A DNA stretch of 64,000 bases, taken from assembly GCA_028554795.2 (NCBI GenBank), contig CM068832.1, positions 87,393,511-87,457,510 on the forward strand, in the 5' to 3' direction. Shown one piece after another: positions 5,190 to 45,227 of the stretch. Position 1 is the first letter of the stretch; every line of letters starts with the position of its first letter. The stretch comes from Sinohyriopsis cumingii. Lineage: Eukaryota; Mollusca; Bivalvia; Unionida; Unionidae. Position numbers and translations under genes: made by a program. Under the pieces are notes generated by a model. It made no database searches, was not told where the DNA came from, and saw only the letters and a program-made list of their open reading frames with translations.

Positions 5190-6145
5190 AGTGGGATATT
5201 TCCATTTGTCACAGAGATTTCAGTGCTGTTAGCAGTGGTAAAATCAAACATCTTTTAGGTGTCTTTATGCGGGGAACATGAGTCGAGGATTCCACGAAAA
5301 ATACAAAATGGCATTGTTAACCTAGATTTGACTACGGGACCTAGAATGCATTGGGTAGCATACATACTAAGACCCAAACATATTTTATATTTTGACTTGT
5401 ATTGGCTTGTACCGCTTCCTAAAATTGTTAATTATTTAACCCATGGTGATAGCCCAGACTGACAGCCATCATAGTCAAATGGGCCAAAATATGGTCATGT
5501 TGTTGTTAAAGAATTGCATGCACTTGAGCATTCACCATCCCAGCAAATGTGTATTGAAATTACGTTTCAGTTTGCTTAACATTATTCAAAATGTATGCTA
5601 ATATTTACTCAGATGTTGTATTGATGAAAATCTGAGCAGATTTTCCACCAAAGCAGATTTGGCTGAGATTTGGCTTAGTTTACCAGCCACATTGTTGCTG
5701 ACATTGACCCAGATGAGATTGTGAATTTTGAAGATCGAACTGGTAAACTTAAAATGTGTAACATGTTATTTGTGGAATCGATATGGCAACAGCCTTTGGT
5801 CTGAGTGTGGTATGAATCGCAACCACATTGACTATTACACTGCAGCCAGTGGAATTGTCGGAACCAGTGTCACAGGTGGTGCTGGTAAAATTATTTCGTT
5901 ATGGCTGCATTCTGGAATACTTGTTTATTCCAAATTTTCATGGCAGCACAAAGCAGTTTCAATACAAATAATAACTCGATGGCTATTGAGGATCAAAGAA
6001 TTAGCAAGGCCGAGTTTGAGTTAGTGTTGGTGGAAATGGAAAACCACTGGCAACTATGTGCACATGTACGAAACCAGGGGTTTGATGATTTACAAAGAGT
6101 ACAGGTCGAGCAATTTCCTTTTAAAATAAAATGTTTATAAATACC
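5190..6145 (+). mobile_element. Polinton/adintovirus-like element, fossil copy (protease plus fibre part)
   Basis: This is a broken fragment of the same family as the element at 21.1-28.1 kb, on the opposite strand. At about 5215-5530 the translation resembles an adenain-type cysteine protease: IVNLDLTTGP, followed by HWVAY and RPKHILYFD, which is the spacing seen around the catalytic His in these proteases. At about 5640-5760 the reading DIDPDEIVNFEDRTGKLK parallels VGVDPDEVVIFQDRYGKLK in the fibre gene of the 24-kb element. The order protease then fibre is the same in both copies. From 5940 to 6140 a reading with KAEFELVLVEMENHWQLCAH could be a further viral part, but I do not recognise it. 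The copy is heavily decayed with several breaks and looks older than the main element. No ends were identified. Confidence 0.7.
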
Positions 6146-20689: not shown

Positions 20690-21085
20690 TGCAATATCGG
20701 TAAAAATTACAAAAAATCAGTAAAATTAGCTCAAATATCAGTAAAATTAGCTCAAATATCAGTAAAATTAGCTCAAAAAATATGTACATTTTTACTGATT
20801 TACTGGTTTTTACTGGTTTTGATATTTTATTCAATTAAAATCAATTAGAGAATCAAGCAACTTTACCCGACGATCTAATAGACAAAATCACCCAAGATGG
20901 GTAAAATACACCTCAAAAACACGAAATTTATTGATGTTTCACTGAAATTCAGAAATAAAATAAAATATTTCTGATAAAATAAAATAAATCAAAATATTTC
21001 TGATAAAATAAAATAAATTATTTCTGATAAAATAAAATAAAATATTTCTGATAAAATAAAACATTTCTGATAAAATTAAAACCCT
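20690..21085. repeat. short tandem repeats
   Basis: Three copies of 'atcagtaaaattagctcaa' lie at about 20,717-20,775. About six copies of a 'tttctgataaaataaaata' unit lie at about 20,965-21,078, close to the 3' end of the virus-like element. Confidence 0.75.
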
Positions 21086-21099
21086 CACGTGCTGGTACA

Positions 21100-22030
21100 T
21101 TATATAATATTTACTTGATTAATTAAGATTTCACATACAGATTTATTACAAGCTCTTCTCCACGTATGTCAATTAAGCGATTAAGGTGGTCTGTGAGCTT
21201 AAAATTTATTCGTGTTAACATATTATTATGACACCGCAGGTACACAGGATTAGTTGGTTCTTGCACGATTAAACTTCCAGGGACAATTTGTGGTGTAAAT
21301 GTATATAAAATATATCCCTGTTGAGCCTGATTTGATTTTCCGAGATCTATTTGATAGCTACCATCGACTACGTCACAAACCAGATCGTGCTGGTTATATT
21401 AACGATTCTCGGAGATACGTGCCTGCCACCTCCATGTGGATCATTATTATATCTTAAAACAGTTGGAGGTGGTGCTAGTTTTCTCCACGCATCGAGTATT
21501 TTAGGAAAGTTCTCATCAATGACATCATTGACAGATTTTTTTAGTTCATTCGCGTTATATCCGGAGAATTTAAAATTTGGTAGATCAGCTTCCTTTATTT
21601 TATACTTGTCTAAAAAATTATTTTTGCCATGGTAGTCTGCTTTAGTATTAATTACTGTATTAATTAATCGTTGGTTAAGATATTCCATGTCGGATACAAG
21701 TTGATTTAATATTTCTATACGCGTAATGATTTCTTTGCGTGAGTTTGTTATATCAAAAAGATGCTCTTGAAAGTACTGTTGTAGTTGCTGTAGTTGTTGT
21801 TTATGATGTTTATTAATTTCTGTAAATATTTTAGTAAGTTCAATTGTGTTAATAATAACTAGGGCAGCTGTTCCGAATTCTGTTTTTTCAGACGAAAATG
21901 ACCAATAAAATGTATCTCTATCAGGGGGATAAAAAAAAACGTATCACCAGCCTTTGAATTGTTTGCATCAGTTAACGTTTTTTTATACACTGTATCAATT
22001 TCGTGATATGATTGTCCATCTGTGATATAA
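21100..22030 (-). pseudogene. last part of the virus-like element, unrecognised protein (fossil)
   Basis: Protein-like readings on the minus strand cover most of this interval, for example ADLPNFKFSGYNANELKKSV and VIDENFPKILDAWRKLAPPP at about 21,470-21,600, and a polar, Gln-rich helical stretch near 21,740-21,840. It follows the candidate penton gene directly and is on the same strand, so it belongs to the element. Broken. I do not recognise the family. Confidence 0.45.
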
Positions 22031-22573
22031 TCAGATTTTTTTCGGTTCTGGTGGTCCTTCATACACCGGGGGAACATCCGGCCAACCCAGTATGGATCTT
22101 ATCGTGGACTGATAAATATCAACGGCATAATCAGGAGAATGTATTTCAACCGTCGAGGACGGCGTCGGCTCATGAACGTTAATTGATATTTTCGCTTCTT
22201 TTCCTGTTATTGATTTTATTCTACGTTGAAATTCATCATTGATATCTTCAATCTCATAACTACCAGTTGGTATTCCAACATCTGTCCAGTCAGGAGTACT
22301 ATCTGGTTTGTTCTTGTTAGCAAATACAAGCGAATTATTTGCTGGTGTACCATTAAATGATTTTGATCTGATATTTGGCCAGCTGTAATATACTCGTAAT
22401 TGCGCTAGTGCTATTTCCTTTACTGGAATTGCAGTAGGAAAGTTAATACTAAATTCAGGATTAGTTGAACTTACCGAGATCATCGTTATCTTTGGCGGAG
22501 TTGTGTTAGTCACGATCTGCTGGAGTAATTCTGTCATTATTAATACTTGTATCTTTAATACCAATGCATTCAT
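22031..22573 (-). CDS. candidate penton / minor capsid protein of the virus-like element
   Basis: An open frame of 180 codons. The visible signature is IALAQLRVYYSWPNI, then IPTGSYEIEDINDEF, then a hydrophobic 'SILGWPD' block near the end. The pattern 'IAL..L..Y.SWPNI ... GSYEI.DIN ... S..S.LGF' is one I associate with a conserved protein that accompanies capsid genes in Polinton/adintovirus-type elements of cnidarians and arthropods (family memory, not a search). The predicted fold is beta-rich, compatible with a single jelly-roll. An AT-rich TATA-like stretch sits just before the start. The start is uncertain: a Met at residue 13 is an alternative. Confidence 0.5.
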   Translation of the reverse strand: MNALVLKIQVLIMTELLQQIVTNTTPPKITMISVSSTNPEFSINFPTAIPVKEIALAQLRVYYSWPNIRSKSFNGTPANNSLVFANKNKPDSTPDWTDVGIPTGSYEIEDINDEFQRRIKSITGKEAKISINVHEPTPSSTVEIHSPDYAVDIYQSTIRSILGWPDVPPVYEGPPEPKKI

Positions 22574-22687
22574 GATATATTTTAGTTATCATTGAAAACT
22601 AGAAATCAGATATAATTCCATCACTGAGACTCGCTGATAAAAACGAGGATAATTTCGAGTATGCTACCGTCGCTGTGTGTAATTTTA

Positions 22688-22991
22688 TTATGTAATCGGA
22701 TAATTTTTCGTTCGTGCAAGTACATATTGTTTTGCGATGATATTAAGCACACCTGCAATAGTTGTTGCTGCTGAAATACAAATAGTTACGGCTACTGGTG
22801 CCATCATTGTCACCGCTGATAATATAACACCGGTTCCAGCAACAATAGCGGATCCTGAATAAACAATCACGTCGACGATAACTAATCGTCGTCGATATTT
22901 TTTTTACTTTTACTGTATATTGTTCGACTCGATCTTTTAATGCTGCCTGCCATTCACGCGCTTGATTGTACCTGTATTGTGCACCGTCCAT
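22688..22991 (-). pseudogene. small membrane protein of the virus-like element (fossil)
   Basis: The N-terminal part is charged (MDGAQYRYNQAREWQAAL, then VKVKK). The C-terminal part has two hydrophobic segments rich in Ala, Val, Thr and Ile (IVAGTGVILSAVTMMAPVAV and a following ISAATTIAGVL), consistent with a two-helix membrane protein. It lies between the fibre and the candidate penton gene. Broken. Function unknown; small membrane proteins are common in internal-membrane virions of this class (inference). Confidence 0.45.
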
Positions 22992-24001
22992 ATATTTTTA
23001 TGTAGTAACCAATTGAGGTGTTTCAGCTACAAATTCCAAACACCACCAGTAAGATGTTGAGGTTAATTTCTTATCAGCTGCTTCCAGAATAAATATTTCT
23101 TCGGTTCCGCTATTTAATATAACAGATACAACCCCGGAAAACCTATCCGTTGAATGACGCCATGGATACGTTGTAAATATTTCAAATTTTTCAGCACTAA
23201 ACACAGACAACCTGTACACGCCTGTGACTGTTGCGGTATATTTGATAGTTTTATTTTGCTGCGACCATGTTGCAAATCCCGATGATACTGTGTATAGGCT
23301 GTTTGTGATATGTCCGGGAGTTATTCCAGCTGGAGTTTTAATCAAATTGGTTTTATTAACGATCTCAGGAATCTCCGCTACGATGTCTTGTTGTGTTCGT
23401 TTGATCGTGTCTAGGTTAGTTTTGATATCAACGAGTTTCATGTCAATGGCGTGCTGAGTGACGAAGAATTCTTCTGCGTTTTTTTGATAGTTTCTACGAA
23501 ATCTTGCAAAAGCGCCCACGTGAACGTCATACTCAGCCCGCAGCGTGGATAATTTACCATCTACGGTGTCGATGTATTTTTTTTTGTTGCTGCATCTTCG
23601 TCGGATGTTGAATCTCTTAAAACTACTATTTTATTTCCGTTCATGCTTAGTTCACCGGTCATTGTGTCACCGGTGTTTCTTACACGATTAGCAACGCTTC
23701 TTGCAATTTCATCTCTGATGGTTGTAAACGATATACTTGAATCCCTGATTTTTCCGCTGTCAGTAAACACGGGAATATTATCCGTAACTGCACCGAGTAC
23801 TCGTCGAACTATATCATTCCATCTGATGTTGCTCGTTTTTAGTTTACCATATCGATCCTGAAAAATAACAACCTCATCTGGATCAACTCCAACAAGATTC
23901 ATGATATCAGCGAGTTCATCTTTAGTCGCATACTTCGACAGGTCAACGTCGCCGGGTTTTTTCTTAACGCGTGAAGATCTTCTTCCGTAAATATCAACCA
24001 T
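22992..24001 (-). pseudogene. fibre-like protein of the virus-like element (fossil)
   Basis: The N-terminal part reads MVDIYGRRSSRVKKKPGDVD, then KYATKDELADIMNLVGVDPD. It then shows GDTMTGELSMNGN followed by LRDSTSDEDAATKK, the repeat well known from phage tail fibre and tail-collar proteins ('GDTMTG.L.M.GN...L..P...DAATK.YVD'). The downstream region begins with a helical segment (about 23,520-23,400) and ends in a beta-rich Trp-containing domain with 'VSSGFATWSQQNKTIKYTAT', resembling a receptor-binding head. The homologous stretch is present in the fragment at 5.6 kb. Broken. A vertex fibre role is inferred from the motif and gene order. Confidence 0.65.
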
Positions 24002-24448
24002 TATAATAAGACCAGTTGTTTAAAACGCTTTACGCGCAACGAATCGGTTGCTTGTATAATCATGCACGACTTTATGTGGCGGTCTGGATGATTTTGATAT
24101 AGCGTTAAGTACATTAATTACCTCACGGCCACATATTGGCGGATCTGTCATTGTTTGTGTGGGTAGCGTTGGATACCAAACTTTTGAACCAGAGGTTCTT
24201 GCGTGAAGTGGTGCGACATACTTGATAAATTCAACGGGTGGGGCTAACCAGTATTAATCAAAATAAACGATTCAACGTGGATCAATCGCGTATGAGTACC
24301 GGGTCCTGAATTCGAGTCTAGATTAATAATACCGGTTTCGAGTTTGTTTGGTCGGTCCGGTAATTGATCTCGCAAAAAACACCTCTAAAATGTTTTATTG
24401 TTAATTTTTTAGCAACATCAAGTAAATCAAAATTTGATGCTGGAACGT
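24002..24448 (-). pseudogene. adenain-type cysteine protease of the virus-like element (fossil)
   Basis: Near the start the minus strand reads FDLLDVAKKLTIKHFRGVF, then LPDRPNK..TGIINLDSNSGPGTH, matching the N-terminal half of adenovirus/Polinton-type proteases in which a 'GPGTHW' phrase carries the catalytic His. A later 'PPVEFIKYV'-like stretch is also typical. The same gene is present at 5.2-5.5 kb in the second copy. The family processes capsid proteins during maturation (established for adenain). Broken. Confidence 0.65.
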
Positions 24449-24703
24449 CTAACGTGGAAGCCTCAGACCTCTTCCCCAGCGAGATCCCGGTAATCTTAGA
24501 CCGCGTCCCTTTTTTTGGCTATATCGTCCACCAGTAAATTTTTCGAAAACTTTTTTACCCGCCGCTCCAGCAGCACCTAACGCAGCAGCTTTTGCTAACG
24601 CCGGTGCAGCAGCTGCGGCTATCGCAGGTAACACAGCAGCTTTTGCTGCAAGTAGTGCTGGTATTGCAGCTAATAGTGGGAAAAATCCACCTACTTTAAT
24701 CAT
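24449..24703 (-). CDS. small Ala-rich virion protein with basic tail (minor capsid / core-type)
   Basis: An 84-codon open frame. Residues 1-50 form a hydrophobic, Ala-rich segment beginning MIKVGGFFPLLAAIPALLA. The C-terminus is basic and repetitive (KKGRGLRLPGSRWGRGLRLP). The layout of an N-terminal 'GGF.P.L.ALPAL' helix with an Arg/Lys-rich tail resembles small membrane-lytic or core proteins (pX/pVI-like) of adenovirus-related elements. A TATAAAA box lies about ten bases before the start codon. The role is inferred from composition and position between capsid and protease genes. Confidence 0.5.
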   Translation of the reverse strand: MIKVGGFFPLLAAIPALLAAKAAVLPAIAAAAAPALAKAAALGAAGAAGKKVFEKFTGGRYSQKKGRGLRLPGSRWGRGLRLPR

Positions 24704-24748
24704 ATCTTTTATAGCGCTCGGAGAAAGATGTAATTGAACTCCAGTTTT

Positions 24749-24967
24749 TTATTCTAGGGCTTTATTGAAATGTTCAATCTGATTTTTTGTCAACGATAAT
24801 TTGTTTGGACCACCACCAATCTGATCTCGTTTTAGTGATATTTTAGTTCCACATTTGTTGGCGGTTTTTGATTGAAGCTTTTTGACCTTACCAGGAGTCA
24901 GAGTAACATTAACATGACCATACGACATTTTTATATAAAAATATATTTTTCTAAATAACATGATCAA
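24749..24967 (-). CDS. small conserved protein of the virus-like element
   Basis: A 72-codon frame; the better start is the internal Met at residue 14 (MSYGHVNVTLTPGKVKKLQS), which directly follows a 'tatataaaa' box. The body has the pattern 'VTLTPGKVKKLQ...GTKISLKRDQIGGGPNKLSLTKNQI..', two similar halves of about 25 residues ('L.P.Q..K....G....L...QI'). I associate this with small proteins next to capsid genes in Polinton-like elements. Function unknown; the fold is probably beta-hairpin/helix repeats. Confidence 0.5.
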   Translation of the reverse strand: MIMLFRKIYFYIKMSYGHVNVTLTPGKVKKLQSKTANKCGTKISLKRDQIGGGPNKLSLTKNQIEHFNKALE

Positions 24968-25079
24968 AGATTTTCCACTGGTGCATCAGCAACTCTCATT
25001 CGACCACTACCACCTTCAAGTAACATGGCTTTATCGCTGAGTATGACCGCGATTGCTCTGTAGAAGGCACCACCACCTG

Positions 25080-26394
25080 GCGGGTTAGTAACACGAGCTC
25101 GAAAATGTATATCAACGACAGACTATTTAGACAAATCAAGATGTTCCAATGAAAAATAATAAATCGGATATAATGTTGTAAAATCTAGTTGTGATATTTT
25201 CAAACCAGTATCTGTATTTTGATCACGTCCCATGAATGACATTAAACGATGATATACACGCACTACGTGATTTTGATCAGAATTTAACAATATATCTTCA
25301 GTTAGTTCTTGATGTCCATTTATCCGCAAGGAAACTTCATTAACTCCAAGGTCGTCAAATATCATATGTGAACGTTGTTGATTATTCGTCCGATTATTAT
25401 CTTGTAGCGCAATTAAAATATGTCGTGGTGCAGAAACACCTTGTTGTGATGCTATATGCCATGTAAATAAACCAATAACATTACTTTGAACAGCATCTGT
25501 GGCTACTGTTAACCATGATAGCAATGATTTACCGCCTTGATCCATAAAAGAGAGTAATTATTGTTCCTCAGTAATTGATGGAGTCATTACTGGCATCCAC
25601 AATGAAAGTTTTGATATATTTACTTTACCATCAGCAACACCAGCACCTCGCCAGATTGCATCATTATCATCACCTTTTCTTACGAGCACAACTGTATGTT
25701 TAGCTCCAAAGATGACCTTTCTAACATTTCTGCAAAATCCAAAGATGTGAGATAATAGAATTGCACACGAAAAATTTATATTATCCCCTGACAACTCCGC
25801 TCGACGTGTTGCAAACCCTAATTTGCAATTATCGCTATCACCTCGTACAATATCAAAAGCAGCACCTGGTCTGTCTGCGTATTCAGGATCATCAGCAACT
25901 GGTTGTGGATCAACTGCTGTATTTTGTGGTGTTCGTATTTTAGCATACCTGATATGATCAGCGTGGTCAGTAATATCCTTGGCAAACATCATTGTTGGAC
26001 CGGCTGATCTTGTGTAATCATCATAATATCTCGCTAGACCAATTATTGTTGTAGCAACATCAACATCCTTCTGAACTGATTCAATATTTTTTCCATCAAT
26101 CATGTATGTGGCGCTATCAAACAACGTCATAATCCCGTTGTTGACAAAACCAACACGTGCATTGATACCATATGGTGTATTAGCTACAACATTCGTTACA
26201 AGTCTACCTTCTACTTCAATAAACGCCTCAGCGGGCAAGAAATATATACTTGTATCTTGAACCTGTAATTCTATTCTTCCCCGCTGATTTGGTTGTCTTG
26301 CGTCATAGGAATAAAACTGATAATCACGTATTGATTCATACTTAAGGACAGGTGCTTCCATACCAAATGCTGTGTCTGTTTCGCGCTTGAACAT
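25080..26394 (-). pseudogene. double jelly-roll major capsid protein of the virus-like element (fossil)
   Basis: The 5' portion starts MFKRETDTAFGMEAPVLKYE and contains 'IELQVQDTSIYFLPAEAFIE' and 'NNGIMTLFDSATYMIDGKNI', as in the first jelly-roll of Polinton and PLV capsid proteins. The 3' portion contains 'PRHILIALQDN' and 'FDDLGVNEVSLRINGHQ', the second jelly-roll signature ('PR.I...LQ....N...FD...V..I...LN...'). Total coding length is near that expected for a short double jelly-roll capsid (about 420 residues). The gene is the largest in the block. An AT-rich 'ttataataaaa' stretch abuts the start. Broken. Confidence 0.7.
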
Positions 26395-26432
26395 TTTTAT
26401 TATAATACCATTTTTCCAAATGGTGATCTAAA

Positions 26433-26864
26433 TCATCGTCGACGAAGACCGCTTCCTGCTATTAAATTTGCTGTTATATTTTTTTCTGCTTCTTCAGATA
26501 ATTTCGCTAGTTTTTTATTTGCAGCCTGATTTATTATTTTACTGACATCTGCGGGCATAATTTCAGTACTTGGTAATTTTACTGGTTGTTGTTTTCGTCG
26601 CAATAATCGTGCTAGTCTTTCTTTGATCGCCGAGAACGCCTTACCAGCAACATTGACAATTGCTTCAGGAGCTTTATCACGAACAATATCGATAGCTTTC
26701 ATCGATAATTGTTTTGCAACGGGTGCTACTTTTGGAGCTATCCTTGTAAACAATCCTTGTGTAACATCACCAAGTCCATCTCCGTAAGTAGCTCTATAAA
26801 TTGGTAATCGTGAGTTTACCGCTCTGACCTGTACGGGTTTACGATGATTATTATGTATGATCAT
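26433..26864 (-). CDS. basic core-like protein of the virus-like element
   Basis: A 143-codon open frame, strongly basic. The centre holds amphipathic helices (VTQGLFTRIAPKVAPVAKQL, then AIVNVAGKAFSAIKERLARL) followed by LLRRKQQPVK. The C-terminus ends GSGLRRR. A GSG-L-basic ending also fits a protease-processed or DNA-binding virion protein (inference). It lies directly upstream of the capsid gene, as minor capsid/core genes often do. Not recognised by name. Confidence 0.5.
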   Translation of the reverse strand: MIIHNNHRKPVQVRAVNSRLPIYRATYGDGLGDVTQGLFTRIAPKVAPVAKQLSMKAIDIVRDKAPEAIVNVAGKAFSAIKERLARLLRRKQQPVKLPSTEIMPADVSKIINQAANKKLAKLSEEAEKNITANLIAGSGLRRR

Positions 26865-26879
26865 CTTATTTTATTTGTT

Positions 26880-27420
26880 ATTTATCTAACAACTGGTCAA
26901 CAACAAGTTAAGTTCATCGATAAGCTCTCGGCAAACGCCGATATCCATGATACCACCTTGAAATAATCGTCGACAAATATCGGATGCTTCATTAACTATT
27001 TCTGGTGAATTATTTCCGGCACGTTTTTCTCCTATGAGAACTTCTAACCGTGACACATCATTAATAATATTATCAGGACAAAGAAAATTATTTCCCAGAC
27101 CACTACCAGTAGCACCTGGTACATCATCGTCAGGATCTTCTTTTTTAGAATCTATTTTACTTGATATAAGAGACAATTTCTTTTTCCGCTCAGTCTCTCT
27201 CTCACTCAATTCTTCTTTTTTTTTGTCTCGCTCTTTCATTTTTTTGTTCTATTTCTGCCAGCATCCTTTCCCTTTCTTTTTTAAACTCTTCAATTGACTC
27301 CCGCTTCGATGAAGAAGATTGTTGTTGTTCTATTTGTTGCAGAGGTGGAGGAAGTTGATACTGGGAGAGTTCTTCTTGTTCTAGTTGTTTCAGTCTCTCT
27401 ATCTGTAAAGTATTTTTATT
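26880..27420 (-). CDS. charged coiled-coil protein of the virus-like element
   Basis: An open frame of 117 codons ends at 26,886. Its start is rich in Lys, Glu and Arg (MKERDKKKEELSERETERKK), a clear coiled-coil. The second half (CPDNIINDVSRLEVLIGEKR, then EIVNEASDICRRLF) is a helical domain with several Cys residues. Glu/Gln-rich readings continue upstream to about 27,400 on the same strand, so the gene probably begins further up. No family recognised. Confidence 0.4.
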
Positions 27421-27535
27421 TCTTTATAAAGATCTTTGTATTTTGAATCGTCACTTCTAACCTGTCTTTTGTTTGCATGCATGCGATATATCCATTTAAT
27501 AAGATTATCATCATTTATTCTCTTATGAGGGTGGT

Positions 27536-28105
27536 TTAAAATATCAGATTTGTTAAATATATAAAATAATATTTTTTCGGTAATTTTTCTCTTTCAGTAT
27601 TTCTAATATCTTCAACAACCCCTTCCTTAAATCTTGCAATTAATTTTATATTTTCTTTTATTGGCTTGGATTTAGGTGCATGTTCTTTTTGCACGTCGGC
27701 GACTTCAGCACGAAGTTTTCCAATTTCCTCACCATCAGTTGGAGGTTGAGCCGCAGCTATATCAGCTGGAAGATCTCGTAAAATCTTCTTTGTCTGTTTA
27801 GTTCTTCTTGCTATATTTTCGGTTTGTGCCGCAGTTTGTTCTAATACCGGAAAAATACCCTTTTTCCTCTTCTCATCTTCCTCCGCAATATCTCCCCATA
27901 TAGTTTTTTCAACAGCCGCCGAAACTTTCTTAGTAGCTGCAGTGATAGGTTTGGACAGTTTTTTAGTATCTTCTTCGTACTCAACTTGTGCTTCTTGTTG
28001 CGCTTGTAGATTTTTTCTGAATGAGTCTCTGACAGGAAGAAATGTTTTAATTGCTTCTAATCGTTCTCGTGCTATTCTTGCAGTATGAGATTCCGGATGT
28101 ACCAT
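27536..28105 (-). CDS. helical protein at the 5' side of the virus-like element
   Basis: A 189-codon open frame, intact. It is predominantly helical and charged (ARERLEAIKTFLPVRDSFRK, then QQEAQVEYEEDTKKLSKPI), with a likely coiled-coil around residues 110-165. The final ~12 residues (KYYFIYLTNLIF) look like read-through into AT-rich DNA. The start is preceded by an AT-rich 'gttatatcaaaataatgg' context like that of its neighbours. It is the first gene of the block as transcribed. Function unknown. Confidence 0.5.
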   Translation of the reverse strand: MVHPESHTARIARERLEAIKTFLPVRDSFRKNLQAQQEAQVEYEEDTKKLSKPITAATKKVSAAVEKTIWGDIAEEDEKRKKGIFPVLEQTAAQTENIARRTKQTKKILRDLPADIAAAQPPTDGEEIGKLRAEVADVQKEHAPKSKPIKENIKLIARFKEGVVEDIRNTEREKLPKKYYFIYLTNLIF

Positions 28106-28134
28106 TATTTTGATATAACAATTTTTTAATTAAT

Positions 28135-28390
28135 AGCAGCAGAGAGGGCGCCTACCAATGTTGGTCGTCCGTGGAAATTAAACAAAAAGTAAATAAACAC
28201 GTAGAGTACTTTATTTTTTTCAGCTACCTTTTCGAACTAAGGTTTTATTGATGGGGGTGGTTTCAACAAAAATAAAAACCTCCCAGGAAACGTTTATTTG
28301 TAAAAATCTGGACCTTTCTACGAGATGATTTTAATTTTGTTTATATTTTTTTTGTCGGAATTCTTGGGTCTGTTCGCCCTCTCTGCTGCT
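28135..28390. mobile_element. 256-bp unit with perfect 16-bp terminal inverted repeats
   Basis: agcagcagagagggcg at 28,135-28,150 is the exact reverse complement of 28,375-28,390. The inside has no coding frame and is unrelated on the two sides. It begins 30 bases beyond the start codon of the first gene of the virus-like element, so it is either a MITE inserted at the element edge or part of the element's terminus. No clear target-site duplication was seen. Confidence 0.65.
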
Positions 28391-29370
28391 CAAGTTCATT
28401 TGGAAAATGGGAAATTGTATTACCTTAATCCTTATTTTCAAAGTCGCTAAAGATTAATGAGTGGAAATTCATCATTGATATTTTGAAATAAACTCAATAG
28501 CACCAACTTCCAAGAATATTTTTGATGTGCGTATACTTCAGCCATTGACGGATCACAAATTGATCTACCAGTTGTATTGGTATATCAGTATCTTTTATAC
28601 CAATACTTTAAAAGCAATTATATTTTTTAATGTATGTGGTAGAAGTTAGATAAATTTTAAATGTTATTATATGGTGATTAGAACCCATATTCGCAGGAAA
28701 ACGGCATACATCGCCGAGCCTGCACACACCGGTCTATATTTTATCACGATGCGACCGAGTCGACGAGACGGTGTTAGATGCATTCGTGCGTAGCAGACTT
28801 ACTTGCATGGTGACGCAGTAATTAACACCGACTCAGTCACATTAAATTTGCATAGTATTATAATAAATAATATTGATTTATATTGTGTTCGACACAGAGC
28901 ATCCTCCCTACAAGTAGATTAACAACAATAATAACAACAAATAAAAAGCACTTACGTACATACAAGTGTGTGAAATGTGGTATAAAAAAATATAAATGTA
29001 TCTTAGGACACAAATTGTCTGGTGGTGATATCGCTGCTTCATTATGAAAATTACCAGAACTCCATGGGCTAAATACCCATGATAAAAACATTTTCCTGGA
29101 TATAACTATTGTGGTCCTGGAAGCAGACTTGATATTTGATTTGACGAATGATGTCAACCAAGACTGGAGAGTATCCAATAAATGCAATTGATCAATCATG
29201 TCACGGTCGTGTTGTAGCGTATACAAATAAGGATTTACAACAACGACATATTGCAGATGTGAAGTTGATTCACTTGCTAAATTCTGTAAAAGATAAAACT
29301 CTCACAGAAAAATTTGCTAGCTTCCTAGTAAGATCTGCGATGAAAGGTAAACTGTTAATTAGTCAGCCGA
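28391..29370. other. non-coding stretch with a GC-richer inverted repeat
   Basis: At 28,740-28,850 GC rises sharply. 'gaccgagtcgacgagacggtgtta' (about 28,756) is partly mirrored by 'taacaccgactcagtc' (about 28,829). An open frame at 29,148-29,402 (+) has a protein-like reading (GEYPINAIDQSCHGRVVAYT, then 'LLNSVKDKTLTEKFASFLVR') that I cannot assign; it runs up to the integrase-like piece and may be part of the same element. Confidence 0.35.
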
Positions 29371-29735
29371 TTATTATTATAATGAAATCGATTTATTTAT
29401 AGCCCAAGAGGATATTGGAAAGGTAGATCAGCATTAGTAAACTTGCTGATGCAGCAAATGTCACACGTTATGTTGCTGCAAATTGGTTACCAGTACTGGG
29501 TAATGTGACTGTAAGGTATTTTTATGAACTTGGTGAACTTGAAGGTGGTAAAAAAGAGTGACTGATCCAGTCTGGAGTGTAACCACACATACAATTTTAG
29601 CGCGGTAAGATGCACTGGTAGACCTTCAATCTACAGATTAGATTCAACTGCTCCTCAATGTGGATTTGAATGCAAACAATTACAAGAAATTCCTGAAGAC
29701 ACACAATTACCACTGCGTTTACCTTTGTAATCTAG
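29371..29735 (+). mobile_element. Polinton-type integrase N-terminal fragment (fossil)
   Basis: Around 29,390-29,480 the + strand gives a reading with a GYWKG-type phrase followed by 'SALVNL' and 'DAANVTRYVAANWL', matching the N-terminal region of Polinton/Maverick c-integrases ('..GYWKG..A..KLA..A.V....A..WL'). It is short and broken. It lies 1.3 kb beyond the 5' edge of the structural block on the opposite strand, so it may be another gene of the same element or a separate fragment. Confidence 0.45.
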
Positions 29736-31078
29736 CGCCTCGACGTCGATTACGTTCAAGACAGGTCAGCATCACACTTTTGCATGTGTGATTAAGACTA
29801 ATGTTAATTCCATCTGCTGTAAACCGTGTTGGATTATTATTTGAATACTGCCACAACATTACTGTGTTACAGGTCACACAATGATTATTCTGTTGTTTCA
29901 ATATCATGATAAATTCAACATCAAAATCAAAGTCATGTTTATTTTTTGGCTATCCAGTCACAAGATTGATGGTTGTCCTTATGTCTTGAAACATTCAGTT
30001 CCTGTCTGTTTCATTTATATAATTTTCTTTATCTTTTCCATATGCTGCATAGTCTTTTTGTTTGCCCTTTTATGAGTTTTAGTGCCATTATGTTGTATTA
30101 AAAGATGTATAACTTCATAACAAACCTAGTAAAACATTGTCGTACAATTGCACATAAAATCATGTAACAAATTGTGGTCTGACATTCAAAACCCTAACAG
30201 ACTATTAATTTGAATAATATAATCATATCTATATCTGAATTAAAATTTCTTAAACATTTAACTCAAACTGGAAAATAAATATGCATTTATTGAATGTTAA
30301 AGATTTGGTTACAAATTTGCATTGCGTTTGATTTACATTTCTTTTTGGCTAATTTGATGCATTTGCCTGGAGTGATTGGGCATCTACTTTCCGCCAAAAT
30401 TCATAGCAATGGTCAAACTAATGTTCATCTATAGATGTGGAAACAACTAATAATACAAGTCATCCATATCACCTATATAGTACCAACATGTGTTTGATTG
30501 GTACAGGTTTTACAAACTTGGCAACATCAGCCGACACAACCAAAGGTATGTCCATAAGAAGGATTCAAACAGATTGCCGACAAATCAGTTAGATTTGAAA
30601 CTACCATCAACAAATAATGGTGTTTCGTTTCAGATCAGTGATGAAAACATTATGAAGCAAGTGTAATGAGGCATAGTCACTATCCCCTCTGCGCTTGGAG
30701 CACGCATAATGTGACTCCATGTGCTGACTGGAAACATAGTTTTGTCCTCTTAAAACAGACATAACAAGATTTAAATCTCTTTAAGATTGCAATGCAAAAA
30801 GTAGCCACAACTCTCTTTTTCACAATGGTATTTGTTTTTGTAAATATTTCTTCTAAATGACAATAATTTGTTAGTTGCATCAAGATTCATTTTTAATATT
30901 TATATAAATCCAAAATAAATCCAGATGTTCTAATTTACAACAAAACCACCACTGCTGCTTGCATCTTCTGTTTTCATTTGTTTTAGTTGAGCTTTAGATT
31001 TAATTGAACATATAATTAATTATCAGTATTGGTGACACGGTATATGATTGCAACTACCGAACTCTATCTGATTTTCAG
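29736..31078. other. non-coding DNA
   Basis: No gene recognised. A reading around 30,433-30,590 (+) containing 'HPYHLYSTNMCLIGTGFTN' is vaguely protein-like and precedes the receptor pseudogene on the same strand, so it could be a decayed upstream exon. Confidence 0.35.
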
Positions 31079-32200: not shown

Positions 32201-32414
32201 CAGCAAAGAACAAAATGTATTTTAAATTTACTCTCATATATAAATATTCATTGAGTATAACTTAAAAGGTTGTTGACAGCACAAATGCATTCAAGAGAAT
32301 TATATCTTGTTCAAATGCACATTTTTCCTTAACTTGAAACTTTTATGAAACTACTAAACTTTATTTTCAATACTTAACAATAGTTTTCAGCATCCAAAGC
32401 CAAAAAAACAAACA

Positions 32415-32760
32415 AAAGAATGTAGTAGCTGTCTGCCCACTCTGCCAACAAAAAAGAATGTAGTAGCTGTCTGCCCCACTCTGCCAACAAATAAGAATGT
32501 AGTAGCTGTCTGCCCAACAAAAGAATGTAGTAGCTGTCTGCCCACTCTGCCAACAAAAAAGAATGTAGTAGCTGTCTGCCCCACTCTGCCAACAAATAAG
32601 AATGTAGAAGCTATCTGCCCCACTCTGCCAACAAAAAGAATGTAGTAGCTGTCTGCCCCACTCTGCCAACAAAAAAGAATACAGTAGCTGTCTGTCCCAC
32701 TCTGCCAACAAAAAAGAATGTAGTAGCTGTCTGGCCCACTCTGCCAAAAAAAGGAATGTA
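32415..32760. repeat. minisatellite, ~39-bp unit, about nine copies
   Basis: The unit reads 'gaatgtagtagctgtctgcc' plus 'ccactctgccaacaaaaaa'. Copies vary from about 26 to 41 bp through changes in the A-run and one shortened copy near 32,516. On the minus strand this gives repetitive LLAEWGRQLLHSF-type readings in all frames, which I regard as non-genic. Confidence 0.9.
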
Positions 32761-32829
32761 GATCCTGAAGAAGCAACTAAAGTCTGAAGAATCAAGTTAT
32801 TTGTTAATCTGTACAACACATCTTGAGAA

Positions 32830-38037: not shown

Positions 38038-38792
38038 CTACAACTGACATGTAGCCAAAGATGAGTGATAGTCAATTATACACTGAAATATGCACTTGTC
38101 TCCTTTATAAATATGTGATGTAATTCTATTGTCTACATGATCTTCCCTCCATATGTGAACAACTAGATTGTCTCCCTCTAAACTCTCTCCCAGATAGAGC
38201 ATCTCCAAACGCTTGATCCAGTTTCTGCAAATGTTTTTCTTGCCCTTGAAATGGCCCTGACTGATATGATTATTTACTGAGTTGATGCAATACATAGGAT
38301 ATGATAGCCAGTTTGTGTGTTGATTCTCATCTGTATCATTATGCACCACTATTACATTTGAAATGAGAGTGTCATGTGGTCTACCCAAAATTACAAACGT
38401 GTACTGTTTCTTGCCAACCGCAAACTTTTCATACTTATTCTTCCACCAGTCTGGAAGTCTGGTGGGTTGACGTGTTTTGTTATCTACTAGCACTACCTGA
38501 TACTGGCAGTTTAGTAGAATCTGTCCATGGACAGTGGAAGTACTAGTATGACTTTCATATGACGTATTTCCAATATAACCTAGCCACATTTTATGGATAA
38601 ACTGACTTTTAGAGGTAGCTGGCAAATAAAAGTTCTGAGAAATGTTTACAATAGAGCCAATGGAAAATGTCAGCTTTTTATCTACAAGCCTTGCAAAGTC
38701 CAGAAAACCCTGTCCATAGGTTGTAACAGTATACCATGCCAGGTTCTCTGCAACCTCCGTTTTCTTGAGGAATTGGAATACTTCAGAGATGG
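38038..38792 (-). CDS. double hot-dog (thioesterase-like) protein, last exon
   Basis: This is the last and largest exon (752 coding bases plus stop) of a host gene on the minus strand. The acceptor is a strong polypyrimidine tract ending cag at 38,793-38,795, and the first two bases complete a Ser codon with the preceding exon. Joined with 49,094-49,212 and 51,556-51,623, all phases fit and give 313 residues. The product shows two hot-dog repeats. Repeat one has 'KLTFSIGSIVNISQNFYLPA' and 'MWLGYIGNTSYESH', then 'QVVLVDNKTRQPTRLPDWW'. Repeat two starts ISNVIVVHNDTDENQHTNWL and has 'KRLEMLYLGESLEGDNL'. 'DTDENQHTNWLSY' matches the 4HBT-type signature (D-x-GH-NN-Y), with the Asp conserved. Acyl-CoA or acyl-ACP thioesterase activity is inferred. 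No signal or transmembrane segment is seen. Confidence 0.8.
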
Positions 38793-38949
38793 CTGAAAAA
38801 AAAATAACATATTGACTACCTTGCCACAGTATGGAAATTAATCAGTTCTGGCTTGTTCCTTTTGTGATCTATTAATATGTTGCCCTCAATTTAACTCAGC
38901 CCCTATTATCTGACAGAGATGACAGTGGATTCTTTTAAGATAGGCATCC

Positions 38950-40860
38950 ACCATATGGTACAGTGAATATCATGGAGATGATAATAGGTCCTAATAATAC
39001 TGGGTTCCACAATATACAAGTCTCTGGTATAAGGTGGAGATGGCCATGGATCGTATTACTATGAGGTGCCTTGATACAACACACATTACTATATCATGCA
39101 GAAGACCATGGATCATATTACCATGACAGGAAACTCAATATAACATATACCATAATATATCATGGAGATGGTCATAGAATGTGTTACTATGAGGTAACCT
39201 AATAAATATACCACACTCCATAATAGATCATATAAATACCAATGGATCATATTACTAAGAGGCGACCAATTATATATCACATACCATAATATATCATACA
39301 AAATAGCCATGGATCATATTACTATGAGGTGACCAATTATATATCACATACCATAATATATCATACAAAATAGCCATGGATCATATTACTATGAGGTGAC
39401 CAATTATATATCACATACCATAATATATCATACAAAATAGCCATGGATCATATTACTATGAGGTGACCAATTATATATCACATACCATAATATATCATAC
39501 TAAATAGCCTTGGATCATATTACTATGAGGTGACCAATTACATATCACACACCATAATATATTATATAAATAGCCATGGATCATATTACTAAGAGGTGAC
39601 CAATTATATGTCACACACCATAATATATCATACAAAATAGCCATGGATCATATTACTATGAGGTGACCAATTATATATCACAAACCATAATATATTATAT
39701 AAATAACCACGGATCATATTACTATGAGGTGACCAATTATATATCACACACCATAATATATCATACAAAATAGCCTTGGATCATATTACTATGAGGTGAC
39801 CAATTATATATCACATACCATAATATATCATACAAAATAGCCATGGATCATATTACTATGAGGTGACCAATTATATATCACATACCATAATATATCATAC
39901 AAAATAGCCATGGATCATATTACTATGAGGTGACCAATTATATATTACATACCATAATATATCATACAAAATAGCCATGGATCATATTACTATGAGGTGA
40001 CCAATTATATATCACATACCATAATATATCATACAAAATAGCCTTGGATCATATTACTATGAGGTGACCAATTATATATCACATACCATAATATATCATA
40101 CAAAATAGCCATGGATCATATTACTATGAGGTGACCAATTATATATCACAAACCATAATATATTATATAAATAGCCATGGATCATATTACTATGAGGTGA
40201 CCAATTATATATCACATACCATAATATATCATACAAAACAGCCATGGTTCATATTACTATGAGGTGACCAAGATATATCACATACCATAATATATCATAG
40301 AAATAGCCATGGATCATATTACTAAGAGATGACCAAGATATATCACATACCATAATATATCATAGAAATAGCCATGGATCATATTACTATGAGGTGACCG
40401 ATTATATATCACACACCATAATATATTATATAAACAGCCATGGATCATATTACTGTGAGGTGACCAATTATATATCACACACCATAATATATCATACAAA
40501 ACAGCCATGAATCATATTACTAAGAGGTGACCAAGTACATGTATATATCACACACCATAATATATCATAGAAATAGCTATGGATCATATTACTAAGAGAT
40601 GACCAAGATATATCACATACCATAATATATCCCAGAAATAGCCATGGATCATATTACTAAGAGATGACCAAGATATATTACATACCATAATATATCATAG
40701 AAATAGCATGGATCATATTACTAAGAGATGACCAAGATATATCACATACCATAATATATCATACAAAATAGCCATGTATCATATTACTAAGAGGTGACCA
40801 ATTATATATCACACACCATAATAGATCATAGAAAAAAGCCATGGATCATATTACTATGAA
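38950..40860. repeat. 67-bp satellite, about 28 copies
   Basis: The unit reads 'ccatggatcatattactatg' + 'aggtgaccaattatatatca' + 'cataccataatatatcatac' + 'aaaatag'. Successive ccatgg starts at 39,307 and 39,374 give the 67-bp period. The central copies are nearly identical, while edge copies (38,950-39,290 and after 40,500) are more diverged, as expected for unequal exchange. It lies in the intron of the hot-dog gene. Confidence 0.95.
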
Positions 40861-41394
40861 TGGAAATAACAATTTATAAAGGTATCACTGCTATATAATC
40901 ATGTTAACCTAATTTCTTACAAAATAAGGGTACAAGACAATTAATTCAAAGTCATGGGACCAATTGTACACACGGGAACTGTTAGATGTAAATGACAAAA
41001 TATATGTCAATTTTGAAGGTAATTCATGAAAGCTATGATTTTAGTTAAACACAAAATAAGTCTAATATTTAATGCCACAATGACAAATCTGGTGAAAATC
41101 TTGAAATTAAATGTCTATTGCATATCAACTCGATTGACGATAGACAGAGCTTATTACCTGTAAAGTATTCAATACAATAATTCCTACACTGTCTACAGAC
41201 ACTGAGTCAGAATAAAATGTTCTTTAAAATGTTTAAATTGGAGAAACTAACATGTGATATGTGTCATTATGCACTGAGGTTGCTATGGTTATTCCTGAGA
41301 ATGTCATAATATAAGTGTAATAAGGATCTGTGCAGAAAAAGTTTCTTATAGCTTCATCCAGTCAAATATTGGAGTTGTAGATACCATTTCAGCT
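40861..41394. other. intronic DNA, nothing recognised
   Basis: This is a spacer between two satellite arrays, inside the same intron. Confidence 0.4.
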
Positions 41395-42545
41395 AGTTAC
41401 ATATGCCAGTGGTTGATGAGGAATGAAGTGGTTGATGACCCTGGGATAGCAAAGATGCATCAGAGTGTTGAATGGCTGACAACCCTGGGTTAATGAAGAT
41501 TATCAGAGTGTGAAGTGGCTGACAACCCTGTGATAGTAAAGATTCATCAGAGTGTTAAGTGGCTGACAACCTTGAGATAGTAAAGATGCATTAGAGTGTA
41601 AAGTGGCCAACAACCCTGGGATAGCAAAGATGCACTGGAGGGTGAAGTGATTGATGACCCAGGGCTATTGAAGATGCATCAGAGTGAGAAGTGGCTGACA
41701 ACCATCGGATAGTGAAGATGCATTATAATGTGAAATTGCTGATAACCCAAGGCTGGTGAAGATACATCAGAGTGTGAAGTGGTTGACCAGTGTAGACTAG
41801 CATAGATGGATTTAAGTTGAAGTGGTCAGCAACCCTTGGATAGTGAAGATAAATTTTAGTATGAAGTGATTGACAACCCTGCAAAAAAATGCATCAGAGT
41901 GAGAAGTGGTGACAACCCTGGGACTGTAAAGATACATCTTAGTATGAAGTGGTTGACAACCCTGCAAAAAAATGCATCAGAGTGAGAAGTGGTGACAACC
42001 CTGGGACTGTAAAGATACATCTTAGTGTGAAGTGGTTGACAACCCTGCAAAAAATGCATTAGAGTGAGAAGAGGTTGACAACCCTGGGATTGTAAAGACA
42101 CATCTTAGTGTGAAGTGGTTGACAACCCTGCAAAAAATGCATTAGAGTGAGAAGAGGTTGACAACCCTGGGATTGTAAAGATACATCAGAGTGTGAAGTG
42201 GTTGACAACCCTTGGATAGCCAAGATGCATCAGAGTATCAATGGGTGACATGGTTGACTACCCTGAGATAGCAAAGATACATCAGAGTGTGAAGTGGTTG
42301 ACTACCCTGGGATAGAAATGGTACATCTTAGTGTGAAGTGGCTGATAACCCTGGGATAGCAAAATGCATCAGAGTGTGAAGTGGTTGACAACAATGAGTT
42401 AGTAAAAAAGCATCAGAATGTTAAATTGTTGATGACCATGAGCTAGCAAATATGTGACAGTGTGAAATGGTTCATGACTCTGAGCTAGCATAGATGTGTC
42501 AGTGTGAAATGAGTGATAAACCTGAGCTTTTGAACATGTGTCAGA
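41395..42545. repeat. 44-bp satellite, about 26 copies
   Basis: The unit reads 'gatgcatcagagtgtgaagt' + 'ggttgacaaccctgggatag' + 'caaa'. Copies differ by 10-20%. A higher-order unit of two copies ('...cctgcaaaaaaatgcatcagagtgagaag...') is repeated about four times between 41,875 and 42,170. Confidence 0.92.
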
Positions 42546-43254: not shown

Positions 43255-43505
43255 ATTTTGCATGTGTATGTGTGCCACAGAATGTAGGTACTCCAAGGAT
43301 AAAGCTATAGTTTGCATGGGAATGGGCTTTGTGAAGTAACAGTACACCAAGGATATAGCTACAGTTGACATGGGTATTGGCTTTGTGGAATATGGGTACT
43401 CCAAAGATAAACCATGGGCATGGGCTTTGTGGAATATGGGTACTCCAAGGATAAAACAGAAATATATACGGTTACTCCAAGGATATAGCTATAGTTTGCA
43501 TGGGG

Positions 43506-43831
43506 TGTGATGTGATGTGATGTGATTTTGATTTTTAACGTAGCTTTAACAATTTTTCAGTCATATCGCTACGATGTCTGCAATGTGGCAGTTTATAGTG
43601 ATGTCTAGCACTGGGGCATCATGCAGCAGACATGTAGCATGATGTCCCACCCAATAACATTATCCTGACACCAGGCCGACCAGTCCTAACACTAACCTCT
43701 TAATGCTGAACGCCAAGCGAGGCAGCTGTTAGTACCATTTTTTAAGTCTCTGGTATGACTCAGCCGGGGATCAAAGCCACGACCTCCCGCATCCGAGGTG
43801 GATGCTCTAACCACTAGGCCACCGGAGTGGT
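43506..43831 (-). repeat. tRNA-derived SINE, family 2, inserted in the satellite
   Basis: A complete copy. The head (complement of ccactccggtggcctagtgg) lies at 43,812-43,831, the B box 'ggatcaaagcc' complement at about 43,768, and the body ends in a (tgtga)n-like tail at 43,506-43,526. The flanks agtttgcatgggg (43,493-43,505) and agtttgtatgggg (43,833-43,845) form a ~13-bp target duplication with one change. Confidence 0.88.
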
Positions 43832-43973
43832 CAGTTTGTATGGGGATGTACATTGTGGAATATGGGTACTCCAACAGTAAAGCTATAGTTGGCATGGGTA
43901 GTGGCTTTGTGGAATATGGGTACTCCAAGGATAAACCATGGGCATAGACTTTGTGGAATATGGGTACTCTAAG

Positions 43974-45227
43974 TAGGGCTGTCAAAAATCAAGAAAAACC
44001 AACCCGGGTACCCGTTGCGAAATTTAACGGGTACCCGGGTACCCGTTAGCACATGAATGACATGTACAACCGTAGACCAACTAATTGTTATCCCCATTTC
44101 TTTAATATTTTGTATGGAGATAGAGGCTAACCGTGTAATGCACTACTCGGTCTGATGCGTCCGCACTGATGTAGCTGCGAATGATCTGACCGCACGCTAT
44201 TAATTAATAAATTTATTTAGAATGACCATTGTACACAGATGGTAGGTATAATCCAACTTTTAATGATCACTGTGATCAGCCGCGTTAAATCCTTTAGAAC
44301 ACTCACCTTTTTTAAAGTATAAGTCCTTGTTAGAACAGACCACGTTTATTCACCGGCTTTTGACCGCAGATTTGAATTACCCACGCATGCGTGTAAAGCA
44401 GCTTTACCACATGTCAAGAGTAATGCGTTAAAACCGTCTTTGTGTGTGTGTGTGTGTGTGTGAGTGAGAGAGTGAGATAATATTACTAAGAGTCACTATA
44501 ATAACTGTTTTGTTCGACACATGAAGCTCTTCTAAAATGGCAATAACAAATAGGGCTATTATGCCCCACTTATACCACGTGACCACGCAGTCCCAGAAGT
44601 GATATTATTTTGGAATTATAATTCTTAAGATAGTTATGATAAAAACGTAGTAGTATCGAAAGAAGAAATATCAGTATATGTATGATGGCTAACTTTCAAA
44701 CTTAGCAGAGCTAGTCAACTAGAAAAACAACGAGCTGCTCAAAGATTACTTTGAGGCATTACGAAGATTTCAAGGTGTCTAGGTGATAATTGTTCATAAT
44801 ATAAATTGTGGGATTTCTTTGACATGTGTGTTCGGAAATCAAAGGTATCCATCTGGATTTCATTAAAAGAGCACGCAATGTACCGATCATTTAGCACCCA
44901 CAATCAATAGTTATTGTCTACAAAGAGGTTTATTACCTGTAGAACAATGCTATGTTTTAACCTTGGTATATAATGCCTCGGGATAACGGTTTGTCCTGTT
45001 GCACAATGCCAATGAATTTTATTAATCCAAACAGACTCTCTGATGTATTGTTTATTTATATTAAGCAGGGATCTGGTTTCTAATTAAAGCCATAGCTGTC
45101 ACACCTGTTTGAAGTGGTTGGCGAGTGTGGCGATTTTTTTTTATGGGTACCCGCGTTTACGTTTCAATACCCGGGTTTTTCAATATGGTCGGGTACCCGG
45201 GTACCTGAGTACCCGTTGACAGCCCTA
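43974..45227. mobile_element. non-autonomous hAT-type DNA transposon
   Basis: The ends TAGGGCTGTCAA and TTGACAGCCCTA are perfect 12-bp inverted repeats. The 8-bp flanks actctaag (43,966-43,973) and actccaag (45,228-45,235) are a target duplication with one difference, diagnostic of the hAT superfamily, and the insertion splits a satellite unit. Both subterminal regions carry clusters of the palindrome GGGTACCC (about 44,014-44,046 and 45,146-45,213), probably transposase binding sites (inference). The 1.25-kb interior has a (GT)n run at about 44,443-44,462 and no transposase frame, so it depends on an autonomous relative. Confidence 0.88.

What the first reader, a model, noticed from the sequence alone, without database searches (positions are those of the whole stretch)
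21100..28110. A compact virus-like structural gene block without a visible polymerase
About eleven small genes in a row on one strand include a double jelly-roll capsid protein, an adenain-type protease, a fibre and several small virion-like proteins. This gene set is known from Polintons/adintoviruses and Polinton-like viruses, but no PolB or packaging ATPase is recognisable between these bounds. The capsid gene looks short for the class, and several neighbours match no family I know. It could be an undescribed lineage or a partial copy.
Basis: partly seen in the sequence, partly recalled or inferred. Interest (0 to 1): 0.82.

Follow-up and report, generated by a model that had tools for sequence, protein, structure and literature searches.

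The report
Broken copy of abundant animal provirus
The block is a cut-off, decayed copy of a 16-17 kb virus-like element whose end sequence occurs thousands of times in this animal genome; the complete copies examined carry an integrase, a packaging motor and, in place of the usual Polinton polymerase, what looks like a polymerase-helicase fusion otherwise described from protist elements.

Summary
The structural block is real, but it is one 3'-truncated, decayed copy of a large family. It begins at the family's exact terminus (window 28390, minus strand) and ends near 20700. A double jelly-roll capsid match is confirmed. The capsid looks short because of two in-frame stops; the "eleven genes" are about eight genes broken into more open frames. 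The 24-base terminus (up to one mismatch) occurs 7,228 times in the 2.9 Gb genome, against 0 for a reversed control. Of the first 100 listed sites, 62 form pairs 12.0-17.5 kb apart.

Two full copies have ~320-bp inverted repeats and 5-bp target duplications. They encode what the window lacks: rve integrase, A32-type packaging ATPase, PLA2-like protein, HNH endonuclease, and a ~1,180-aa replicase with polymerase-like motifs and a superfamily 1 helicase. It resembles the Tlr1-type pPolB-helicase fusion of ciliate and algal Polinton-like viruses, not classical PolB, which other elements in this genome carry. The polymerase assignment rests on motifs only. Ten paper searches in an open-licence library found no animal element with this replicase; key papers were not held.

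The parts
28148..28390 (-). left terminal region of the element; terminus reads AGCAGCAGAGAGGGCGAACAGACC inward from 28390
   Evidence: same terminus in the nine sampled copies printed, each followed by different flanking DNA (window end again); 7,228 sites genome-wide with up to one mismatch
26910..28123 (-). first gene (387 codons open in copy C2b); here four matched pieces in three frames
   Evidence: tblastn pieces 64%, 48%, 80%, 80%; no Pfam family for the C2b frame at E 0.1
26439..26870 (-). small protein, 145 aa, open frame, 88% identical to copy C2b
   Evidence: dN/dS 0.25 against C2b; weak DUF6866_N (0.2 in the window, 0.049 in C2b)
24967..26394 (-). double jelly-roll major capsid protein gene, broken by two in-frame stops (25560, 25125)
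   Evidence: PF21738 3.9e-8 and 6.7e-5 on two pieces searched apart; stops; open 496-aa relative L011 PF21738 1.1e-19
24455..24940 (-). small Ala/Gly-rich protein (156 codons in C2b), with a stop inside here
   Evidence: 72% identity; two frames with a stop between; no family
24026..24515 (-). adenain-type cysteine protease gene, three fragments in three frames
   Evidence: PF00770 0.0018 (below cut-off) on the open frame of copy C2b
23004..24019 (-). fibre-like protein (340 codons in C2b); two pieces in two frames
   Evidence: phrog_2647 head decoration 4.6e-5 and phrog_2710 tail fibre 0.0021 on C2b; phrog_2710 0.0061 on the window piece
22467..22994 (-). 184-codon protein of unknown role, degraded
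   Evidence: 65% identity to C2b
21129..22561 (-). candidate penton (minor capsid) gene, 484 codons in C2b; two pieces in two frames
   Evidence: 64% and 93% identity; penton role inferred from position and recalled sequence character only; no penton family hit, poor fold model
20700..21128 (-). last homologous stretch before truncation
   Evidence: 89-95% identity to the C6 copy up to window 20700
28856..29949 (.). separate, more diverged relic just upstream: PLA2-like (+), integrase (+, only its two ends matched) and replicase C-terminus (-) fragments
   Evidence: tblastn 39-80% identity, best E 4e-36

Best explanation
The block is the 5' ~7.7 kb of an inserted, now decayed member of a 16-17 kb Polinton-like endogenous virus family. 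The two complete members taken have ~320-bp inverted repeats beginning AGCAGC. Inferred life cycle: the rve integrase inserts the linear DNA and makes a 5-bp duplication (duplication shown in 2 of 2 copies; the enzyme's role inferred). A large replicase copies the genome from its ends: an N-terminal region, then polymerase-palm-like motifs, then a superfamily 1 helicase (motifs shown; protein-primed replication inferred from the Tlr1/Polinton kind). DJR capsid, penton-like and fibre-like proteins form a shell, the adenain-like protease matures it, the A32-type ATPase packages DNA, and the PLA2-like protein helps membrane crossing (all inferred from families). The window copy lost its right part, with replicase, integrase, ATPase and right terminus, and has stops and frame changes in most of its remaining genes.
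For: Shared terminus with different flanks in nine copies and the window. Window homology stops at 20700-21075 while 8 of 10 sampled copies stay alike beyond it. TIR identity 314 of 321 and 310 of 316; TSDs TCCTT and GGGTG. rve 1.1e-7 and 1.5e-8, Pox_A32 1.1e-12 and 2e-11, PLA2-like 7.7e-13 and 7.6e-13. AAA_19 1.7e-10, HNH_3 3.2e-13. Motif order A 446, B 595, C 689 (VATDS, first Asp absent), Walker A 768, Walker B 834. 7,228 termini, control 0; 31 neighbour pairs at 12.0-17.5 kb, median 16.9 kb, among the 100 listed termini. No stop in the replicase match in 45 of 50 scored copies. dN/dS 0.04-0.44 in 12 of 13 comparisons.
Against: No sequence-level match of the replicase to PolB: Pfam lists none at E 0.1, hhalign to a PolB of this genome gave probability 0.1, blastp E 7.2, PDB none at E 1; phage-record tblastn matched only the helicase part of T4-type helicases, at E 0.05 or worse. 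The motif test was framed after seeing the sequence. PDB searches of the capsid gave no capsid (best an unrelated protein at 0.03, none). Fold models of two window proteins failed (pLDDT 31 and 39). Protease and penton assignments are weak, and several genes give only weak hits to unrelated families that I treat as chance (e.g. AlphaC_N2 0.0052, DUF3231 0.003). One dN/dS value is 0.63. No free-virus relative was found by six narrow scans.
Confidence: 0.85

Rival explanations
1. The block is a complete small lineage: a virion-gene cassette that moves without its own replicase, using enzymes of full-length relatives.
For: It has one intact terminus and a compact gene set; one listed terminus pair lies only 2.15 kb apart, so short derivatives may exist.
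Against: No inverted copy of the left end lies within window 10,000-45,000. Most of its genes are broken. Of 43 adjacent +/- terminus pairs, 31 are 12.0-17.5 kb apart and none lies between 2.2 and 12.0 kb. The block ends inside a stretch that continues in other copies.
Confidence: 0.05
2. The full element is an ordinary Polinton or adintovirus whose PolB is merely diverged; the helicase is an added domain.
For: rve integrase, A32-type ATPase, DJR capsid, AG-starting inverted repeats and PLA2 fit Polintons (PMC4642659 passages). The palm assignment is by motifs only.
Against: PF03175 finds classical PolB elsewhere in the genome (75 candidates scored of 21,500) but not in the 902-aa replicase piece. 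On the part of C1 listed, 3 of 3 replicase copies lie inside a terminus pair and 0 of 3 PolB matches do. Motif C lacks the first Asp, a trait described for Tlr1-like proteins, though also for some other active PolBs such as that of mavirus (PMC11071308 section 10).
Confidence: 0.12
3. The capsid-block genes were domesticated by the host.
For: Endogenous viral genes can be kept; the 145-aa frame is open.
Against: Capsid, protease, fibre and penton-like genes are broken; a large sister family explains the similarity.
Confidence: 0.01

Closest known systems
Tlr1 element of Tetrahymena and Tlr1-type Polinton-like viruses (pPolB-S1H fusion)
   Same: rve integrase (in Tlr1) plus a large protein with polymerase motifs followed by a C-terminal superfamily 1 helicase; motif C lacks the first Asp; DJR capsid; packaging ATPase (PMC11071308 sections 4 and 10; PMC4028283 passages)
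   Different: Animal genome; adenain-like protease present (reported absent in Tlr, PMC4028283 passage); PLA2-like protein; HNH endonuclease as a separate minus-strand gene, not a C-terminal domain
Polintons (Mavericks) of animals
   Same: Size, inverted repeats, short target duplication, rve, ATPase, protease, DJR capsid; PLA2-type lipase in some (PMC4642659 passage)
   Different: No classical PolB found in the replicase piece; helicase fusion instead
Adintoviruses and other meldviruses
   Same: Animal-associated adenovirus-class virion genes and integrase; chimeras without recognisable PolB and integrase are described (PMC11071296 section 16)
   Different: Adintoviruses are defined there by an OTU-PolB, a hexon recognisable by BLASTp and an integrase with chromodomain; PolB and chromodomain were not found by Pfam here, the hexon was not compared
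Oxyrrhis marina PLV (helicase SF1-pPolB)
   Same: SF1 helicase joined to protein-primed polymerase; TIR-bounded multi-copy endogenous element (PMC12721341 passages)
   Different: Helicase is N-terminal there; tyrosine recombinase, no rve detected, no target duplication

Membership tests
Polinton/Maverick | DJR major capsid protein | tested here: met
   PF21738, (sequence profile; fold model failed)
Polinton/Maverick | single jelly-roll penton | tested here: inconclusive
   No penton family hit; fold model poor
Polinton/Maverick | adenovirus-like protease | tested here: inconclusive
   PF00770 0.0018, below cut-off, in copy C2b
Polinton/Maverick | A32/FtsK-type packaging ATPase | tested here: met
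   PF04665 1.1e-12 and 2e-11 in two full copies; not present in the truncated window copy
Polinton/Maverick | rve integrase | tested here: met
   PF00665 1.1e-7 (32.4 bits, just under the cut-off of 32.6) and 1.5e-8 (35.2 bits, over it) in two full copies
Polinton/Maverick | classical pPolB with exonuclease and palm | tested here: not met
   PF03175 not listed for the 902-aa replicase piece though it rings for other elements of this genome
Polinton/Maverick | terminal inverted repeats of hundreds of bases starting AG, short target duplication (numbers recalled) | tested here: met
   321 and 316 bp, 5-bp duplication in 2 of 2 copies
Tlr1-type PLV (pPolB-S1H) | C-terminal superfamily 1 helicase | tested here: met
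   AAA_19 1.7e-10, AAA_30 1.6e-7; UvrD_C_2 and Herpes_Helicase only weak in the following frame
Tlr1-type PLV (pPolB-S1H) | palm domain with motifs A and B, motif C lacking the first Asp | tested here: inconclusive
   motifs in order, 0 of 20,000 shuffles, but patterns chosen after sight and no fold available
Tlr1-type PLV (pPolB-S1H) | vOTU domain before the palm | not tested
   possible Cys/His residues seen by eye only
Tlr1-type PLV (pPolB-S1H) | capsid or helicase phylogeny with Tlr1/PLVs | not testable with these tools
   no reference sequences reached
Adintovirus | PolB with OTU-like domain | tested here: not met
   no PolB hit in the 902-aa replicase piece
Adintovirus | integrase with C-terminal chromodomain | tested here: not met
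   Pfam at E up to 1 lists rve and DUF6140 only, in both integrases
Adintovirus | hexon recognisable by BLASTp to adintovirus hexons | not tested
   no adintovirus hexon at hand

The most novel reading that the evidence does not exclude
A lineage of endogenous DNA viruses of animals that combines a Polinton-type capsid, protease, integrase and packaging set with a Tlr1-type polymerase-helicase replicase otherwise described from protist elements, and that has recently spread to thousands of copies beside classical PolB Polintons in the same genome.
Probability: 0.5. Interest if true: 0.75.

Novelty: new variant of a known kind. Interest (0 to 1): 0.6.

Why it matters
Polinton-like viruses with the polymerase-helicase fusion are described from protists and giant-virus parasites (PMC11071308, sections 4, 10 and 11), and cnidarian capsids were the only animal ones outside the main Maverick-Polinton cluster in one survey (PMC10120064, passage). 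An animal family with this replicase would widen the host range of that branch and point to replicase exchange among animal DNA viruses. Thousands of termini, many open replicase frames among the best copies, and purifying selection in most genes sampled make it possible to ask directly whether such elements still spread as viruses. For the window itself the message is sober: a missing polymerase in one copy is a truncation, not a new kind of element.

Tried and rejected
Rejected: short capsid class (two stops explain it); complete mini-element (no second terminus; pair spacing); adintovirus (no PolB or chromodomain hit). Led nowhere: phage-record tblastn, PDB searches of capsid and replicase, six viral-contig scans, two fold jobs, PHROGs on ten window pieces, Pfam on 54 of the 71 surrounding frames of 75 aa or more listed, which itself filtered low-complexity frames; 17 dropped, one in the block and 16 in tandem-repeat zones. 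The first genome search, for a common helicase family, served only to learn what the genome is. Host: nuclear-receptor zinc fingers match in 75 places, which marks an animal (recalled family range); mollusc haemocyanin and arthropod cuticle families gave 0, but no control rang, and a myosin piece pointed to no particular species. A recalled repeat motif had no match in the window.

Papers: I read sections 13, 14, 16 of PMC11071296 and 4, 10, 11 of PMC11071308, with their outlines and abstracts, and passages of PMC7805220, PMC10120064, PMC11071296, PMC10328495, PMC12721341, PMC4642659 and PMC4028283; the rest were search listings only. PMC5499653 and PMC8502044 are not held. 'No report found in animals' rests on ten searches, whose listings I did not read through in full text.
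Full report
What is in the window. The minus strand from 28390 down to about 20700 holds the left part of a virus-like element. Open-frame listing, Pfam and comparison with other copies give this order: a 387-codon gene in pieces, a 145-aa frame that is still open, the double jelly-roll capsid, a small Ala/Gly-rich protein, an adenain-like protease, a fibre-like protein, a 184-codon protein, and a candidate penton of 484 codons (codon numbers from copy C2b). The capsid pieces, searched apart, match PF21738 at 3.9e-8 and 6.7e-5. The protease and the first gene each lie in three frames, the fibre and penton-like genes in two each. No polymerase, ATPase or integrase family was found in 20 frames of the block or in 54 of 71 surrounding frames of 75 aa or more.

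A partial copy of a large family. Besides the window copy itself, 39 scored copies of the capsid DNA are 91-96% identical; the first look had 9,978 candidates and only the best 40 were scored. I fetched 10-kb stretches on both sides of ten copies. On the upstream side, window and copies share an exact terminus, AGCAGCAGAGAGGGYGAACAGACC, followed by different DNA; this was printed for nine of the ten copies and the window. On the downstream side the window copy stops being alike at about 21075, or 20700 against one copy, while eight of the ten copies stay alike to each other at 6-10 kb from the capsid; the other two (C3, C15) break off earlier. No inverted copy of the terminus lies within window 10,000-45,000. 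The block is therefore truncated on the right.

What complete copies contain. For two copies (called C2b and C4) I took a further stretch each. Both end in an inverted repeat of the left end, 314 of 321 and 310 of 316 bases identical, and are flanked by 5-bp duplications, TCCTT and GGGTG; C2b spans about 16.7 kb by coordinates. Their right halves encode an rve integrase (1.1e-7 and 1.5e-8), a PLA2-like protein with DUF5679 (7.7e-13 and 7.6e-13) and an A32-type packaging ATPase (1.1e-12 and 2e-11). C2b also has an HNH/NUMOD endonuclease (3.2e-13 in Pfam, 4.1e-25 in PHROGs) and a long replicase whose first 902 residues end in a superfamily 1 helicase domain (AAA_19 1.7e-10).

The replicase. In the 902-aa piece, polymerase-like motifs stand in order before the helicase: DMVACYP at 446, GKFTQ at 595, VATDS at 689, then Walker A at 768 and Walker B at 834. 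None of 20,000 shuffles had motifs A, B and C in order, but I chose the patterns after seeing the sequence. The loss of the first Asp of motif C and the order palm then helicase are what Krupovic and colleagues describe for Tlr1-like proteins of Polinton-like viruses and transpovirons (PMC11071308, section 10); they note that the same Asp is also missing in some other PolBs. I hold the Tlr1-type reading at about three in four.

Numbers. The terminal 24-mer with up to one mismatch occurs 3,647 times forward and 3,581 times reverse in 2.90 Gb; the pattern read backwards occurs 0 times. Among the first 100 listed sites, all on C1, 43 adjacent +/- pairs were found: 31 lie 12.0-17.5 kb apart with a median of 16.9 kb, one lies 2.15 kb apart and 11 lie more than 30 kb apart. 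If C1 is typical, this means roughly two thousand near-full-length copies; that is an extrapolation. The replicase piece was scored in 50 of 34,321 candidates: 98-100% identical, 45 of 50 without a stop, open frames of 898-1,214 aa; these are the best-scoring copies, one of them the query itself, not a random sample. Twelve of 13 gene comparisons gave dN/dS of 0.04-0.44; the thirteenth, the penton-like gene, gave 0.63, and the comparison of two capsid lineages (0.14) has saturated dS. The comparisons share copies and are not independent. They suggest that the genes worked while the family spread.

Surroundings. Classical PolB elements live in the same genome (PF03175, 75 candidates scored of 21,500). 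On the part of C1 covered by the terminus list, 3 of 3 replicase copies lie inside a terminus pair and 0 of 3 PolB matches do, which suggests separate families. A second capsid lineage is 59% identical to this one (one member read); frames of its length are frequent among the 126 capsid matches listed from 15,190 candidates. Its replicase is unknown. In the window, a more diverged relic of a related element lies at 28856-29949 just outside the block's terminus, and small protease and fibre relics lie at 5292-5765. The host is an animal by its nuclear-receptor zinc fingers (recalled family range); I could not name it.

How it most likely works. By family knowledge, the linear DNA is inserted by the integrase, copied from its ends by a protein-primed polymerase helped by the fused helicase, packaged by the A32-type ATPase into a double jelly-roll shell matured by the protease, with the PLA2-like protein aiding entry as proposed for such lipases (PMC4642659, passage). 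Shown here: gene set, termini, duplications, number of termini and signs of selection. Inferred: every biochemical step. The window copy, truncated and broken, can hardly do any of this alone; it is best seen as a fossil.

Novelty. Tlr1 combines rve integrase, ATPase, capsid and penton with a superfamily 1 helicase protein but lacks the protease (PMC4028283, passages). Animal Polintons have the protease, and some Polintons a PLA2-type lipase (PMC4642659, passage), with classical PolB. This family seems to join the two sets in an animal. Buck and colleagues already describe animal-associated virion-gene sets without recognisable PolB (PMC11071296, section 16) and an exotic polymerase, HelPol, with remote similarity to cellular PolBc (section 13), which I could not compare. 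Ten paper searches found no animal element with the Tlr1-type fusion, but I read few of the listed papers and the key 2016 and 2021 papers were not held. I therefore call it a new variant of a known kind, with modest certainty that it is unreported.

Noticed in passing
window 28856-29949: Diverged relic of a related element: PLA2-like, integrase-end and replicase C-terminal fragments, ordered as the right end of an element whose genes run on the minus strand, directly upstream of the block's terminus.
   Followed up: partly
window 5292-5765 (+): Short protease (44%) and fibre (58%) fragments of another related relic.
   Followed up: no
L044 435-1799 (-) and listing: A second DJR capsid lineage (455-aa frame read, 59% identical to this family's capsid), probably frequent in the same genome; replicase unknown.
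   Followed up: partly
L042 886-3723 (-) and listing: Classical PolB elements (open frames up to 1,363 aa) coexist with the helicase-fusion family.
   Followed up: partly
G000 C1:18201231-18203382: Terminus pair only 2.15 kb apart, possibly a short internally deleted derivative of the family.
   Followed up: no
L025 165-2544; L031 976-4197; L039 6204-7034: Diverged relatives (67-73% DNA identity) lie within 10 kb of family copies in three of ten sampled places, hinting at nested or clustered insertion.
   Followed up: no
window 39100-40874, 41424-42467, 43261-48347, 49724-50181, 32411-32775: Several tandem arrays (spacings 67, 44, 44/54, 76 and 105/39 bp); the last makes chance open frames of repeated peptides.
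   Followed up: no
window 46062-48016: Neighbouring repeat copies about 1.35 kb apart, 91-97% identical.
   Followed up: no
window 38041-38841 (-): 267-codon open frame without any Pfam match at 0.01.
   Followed up: no
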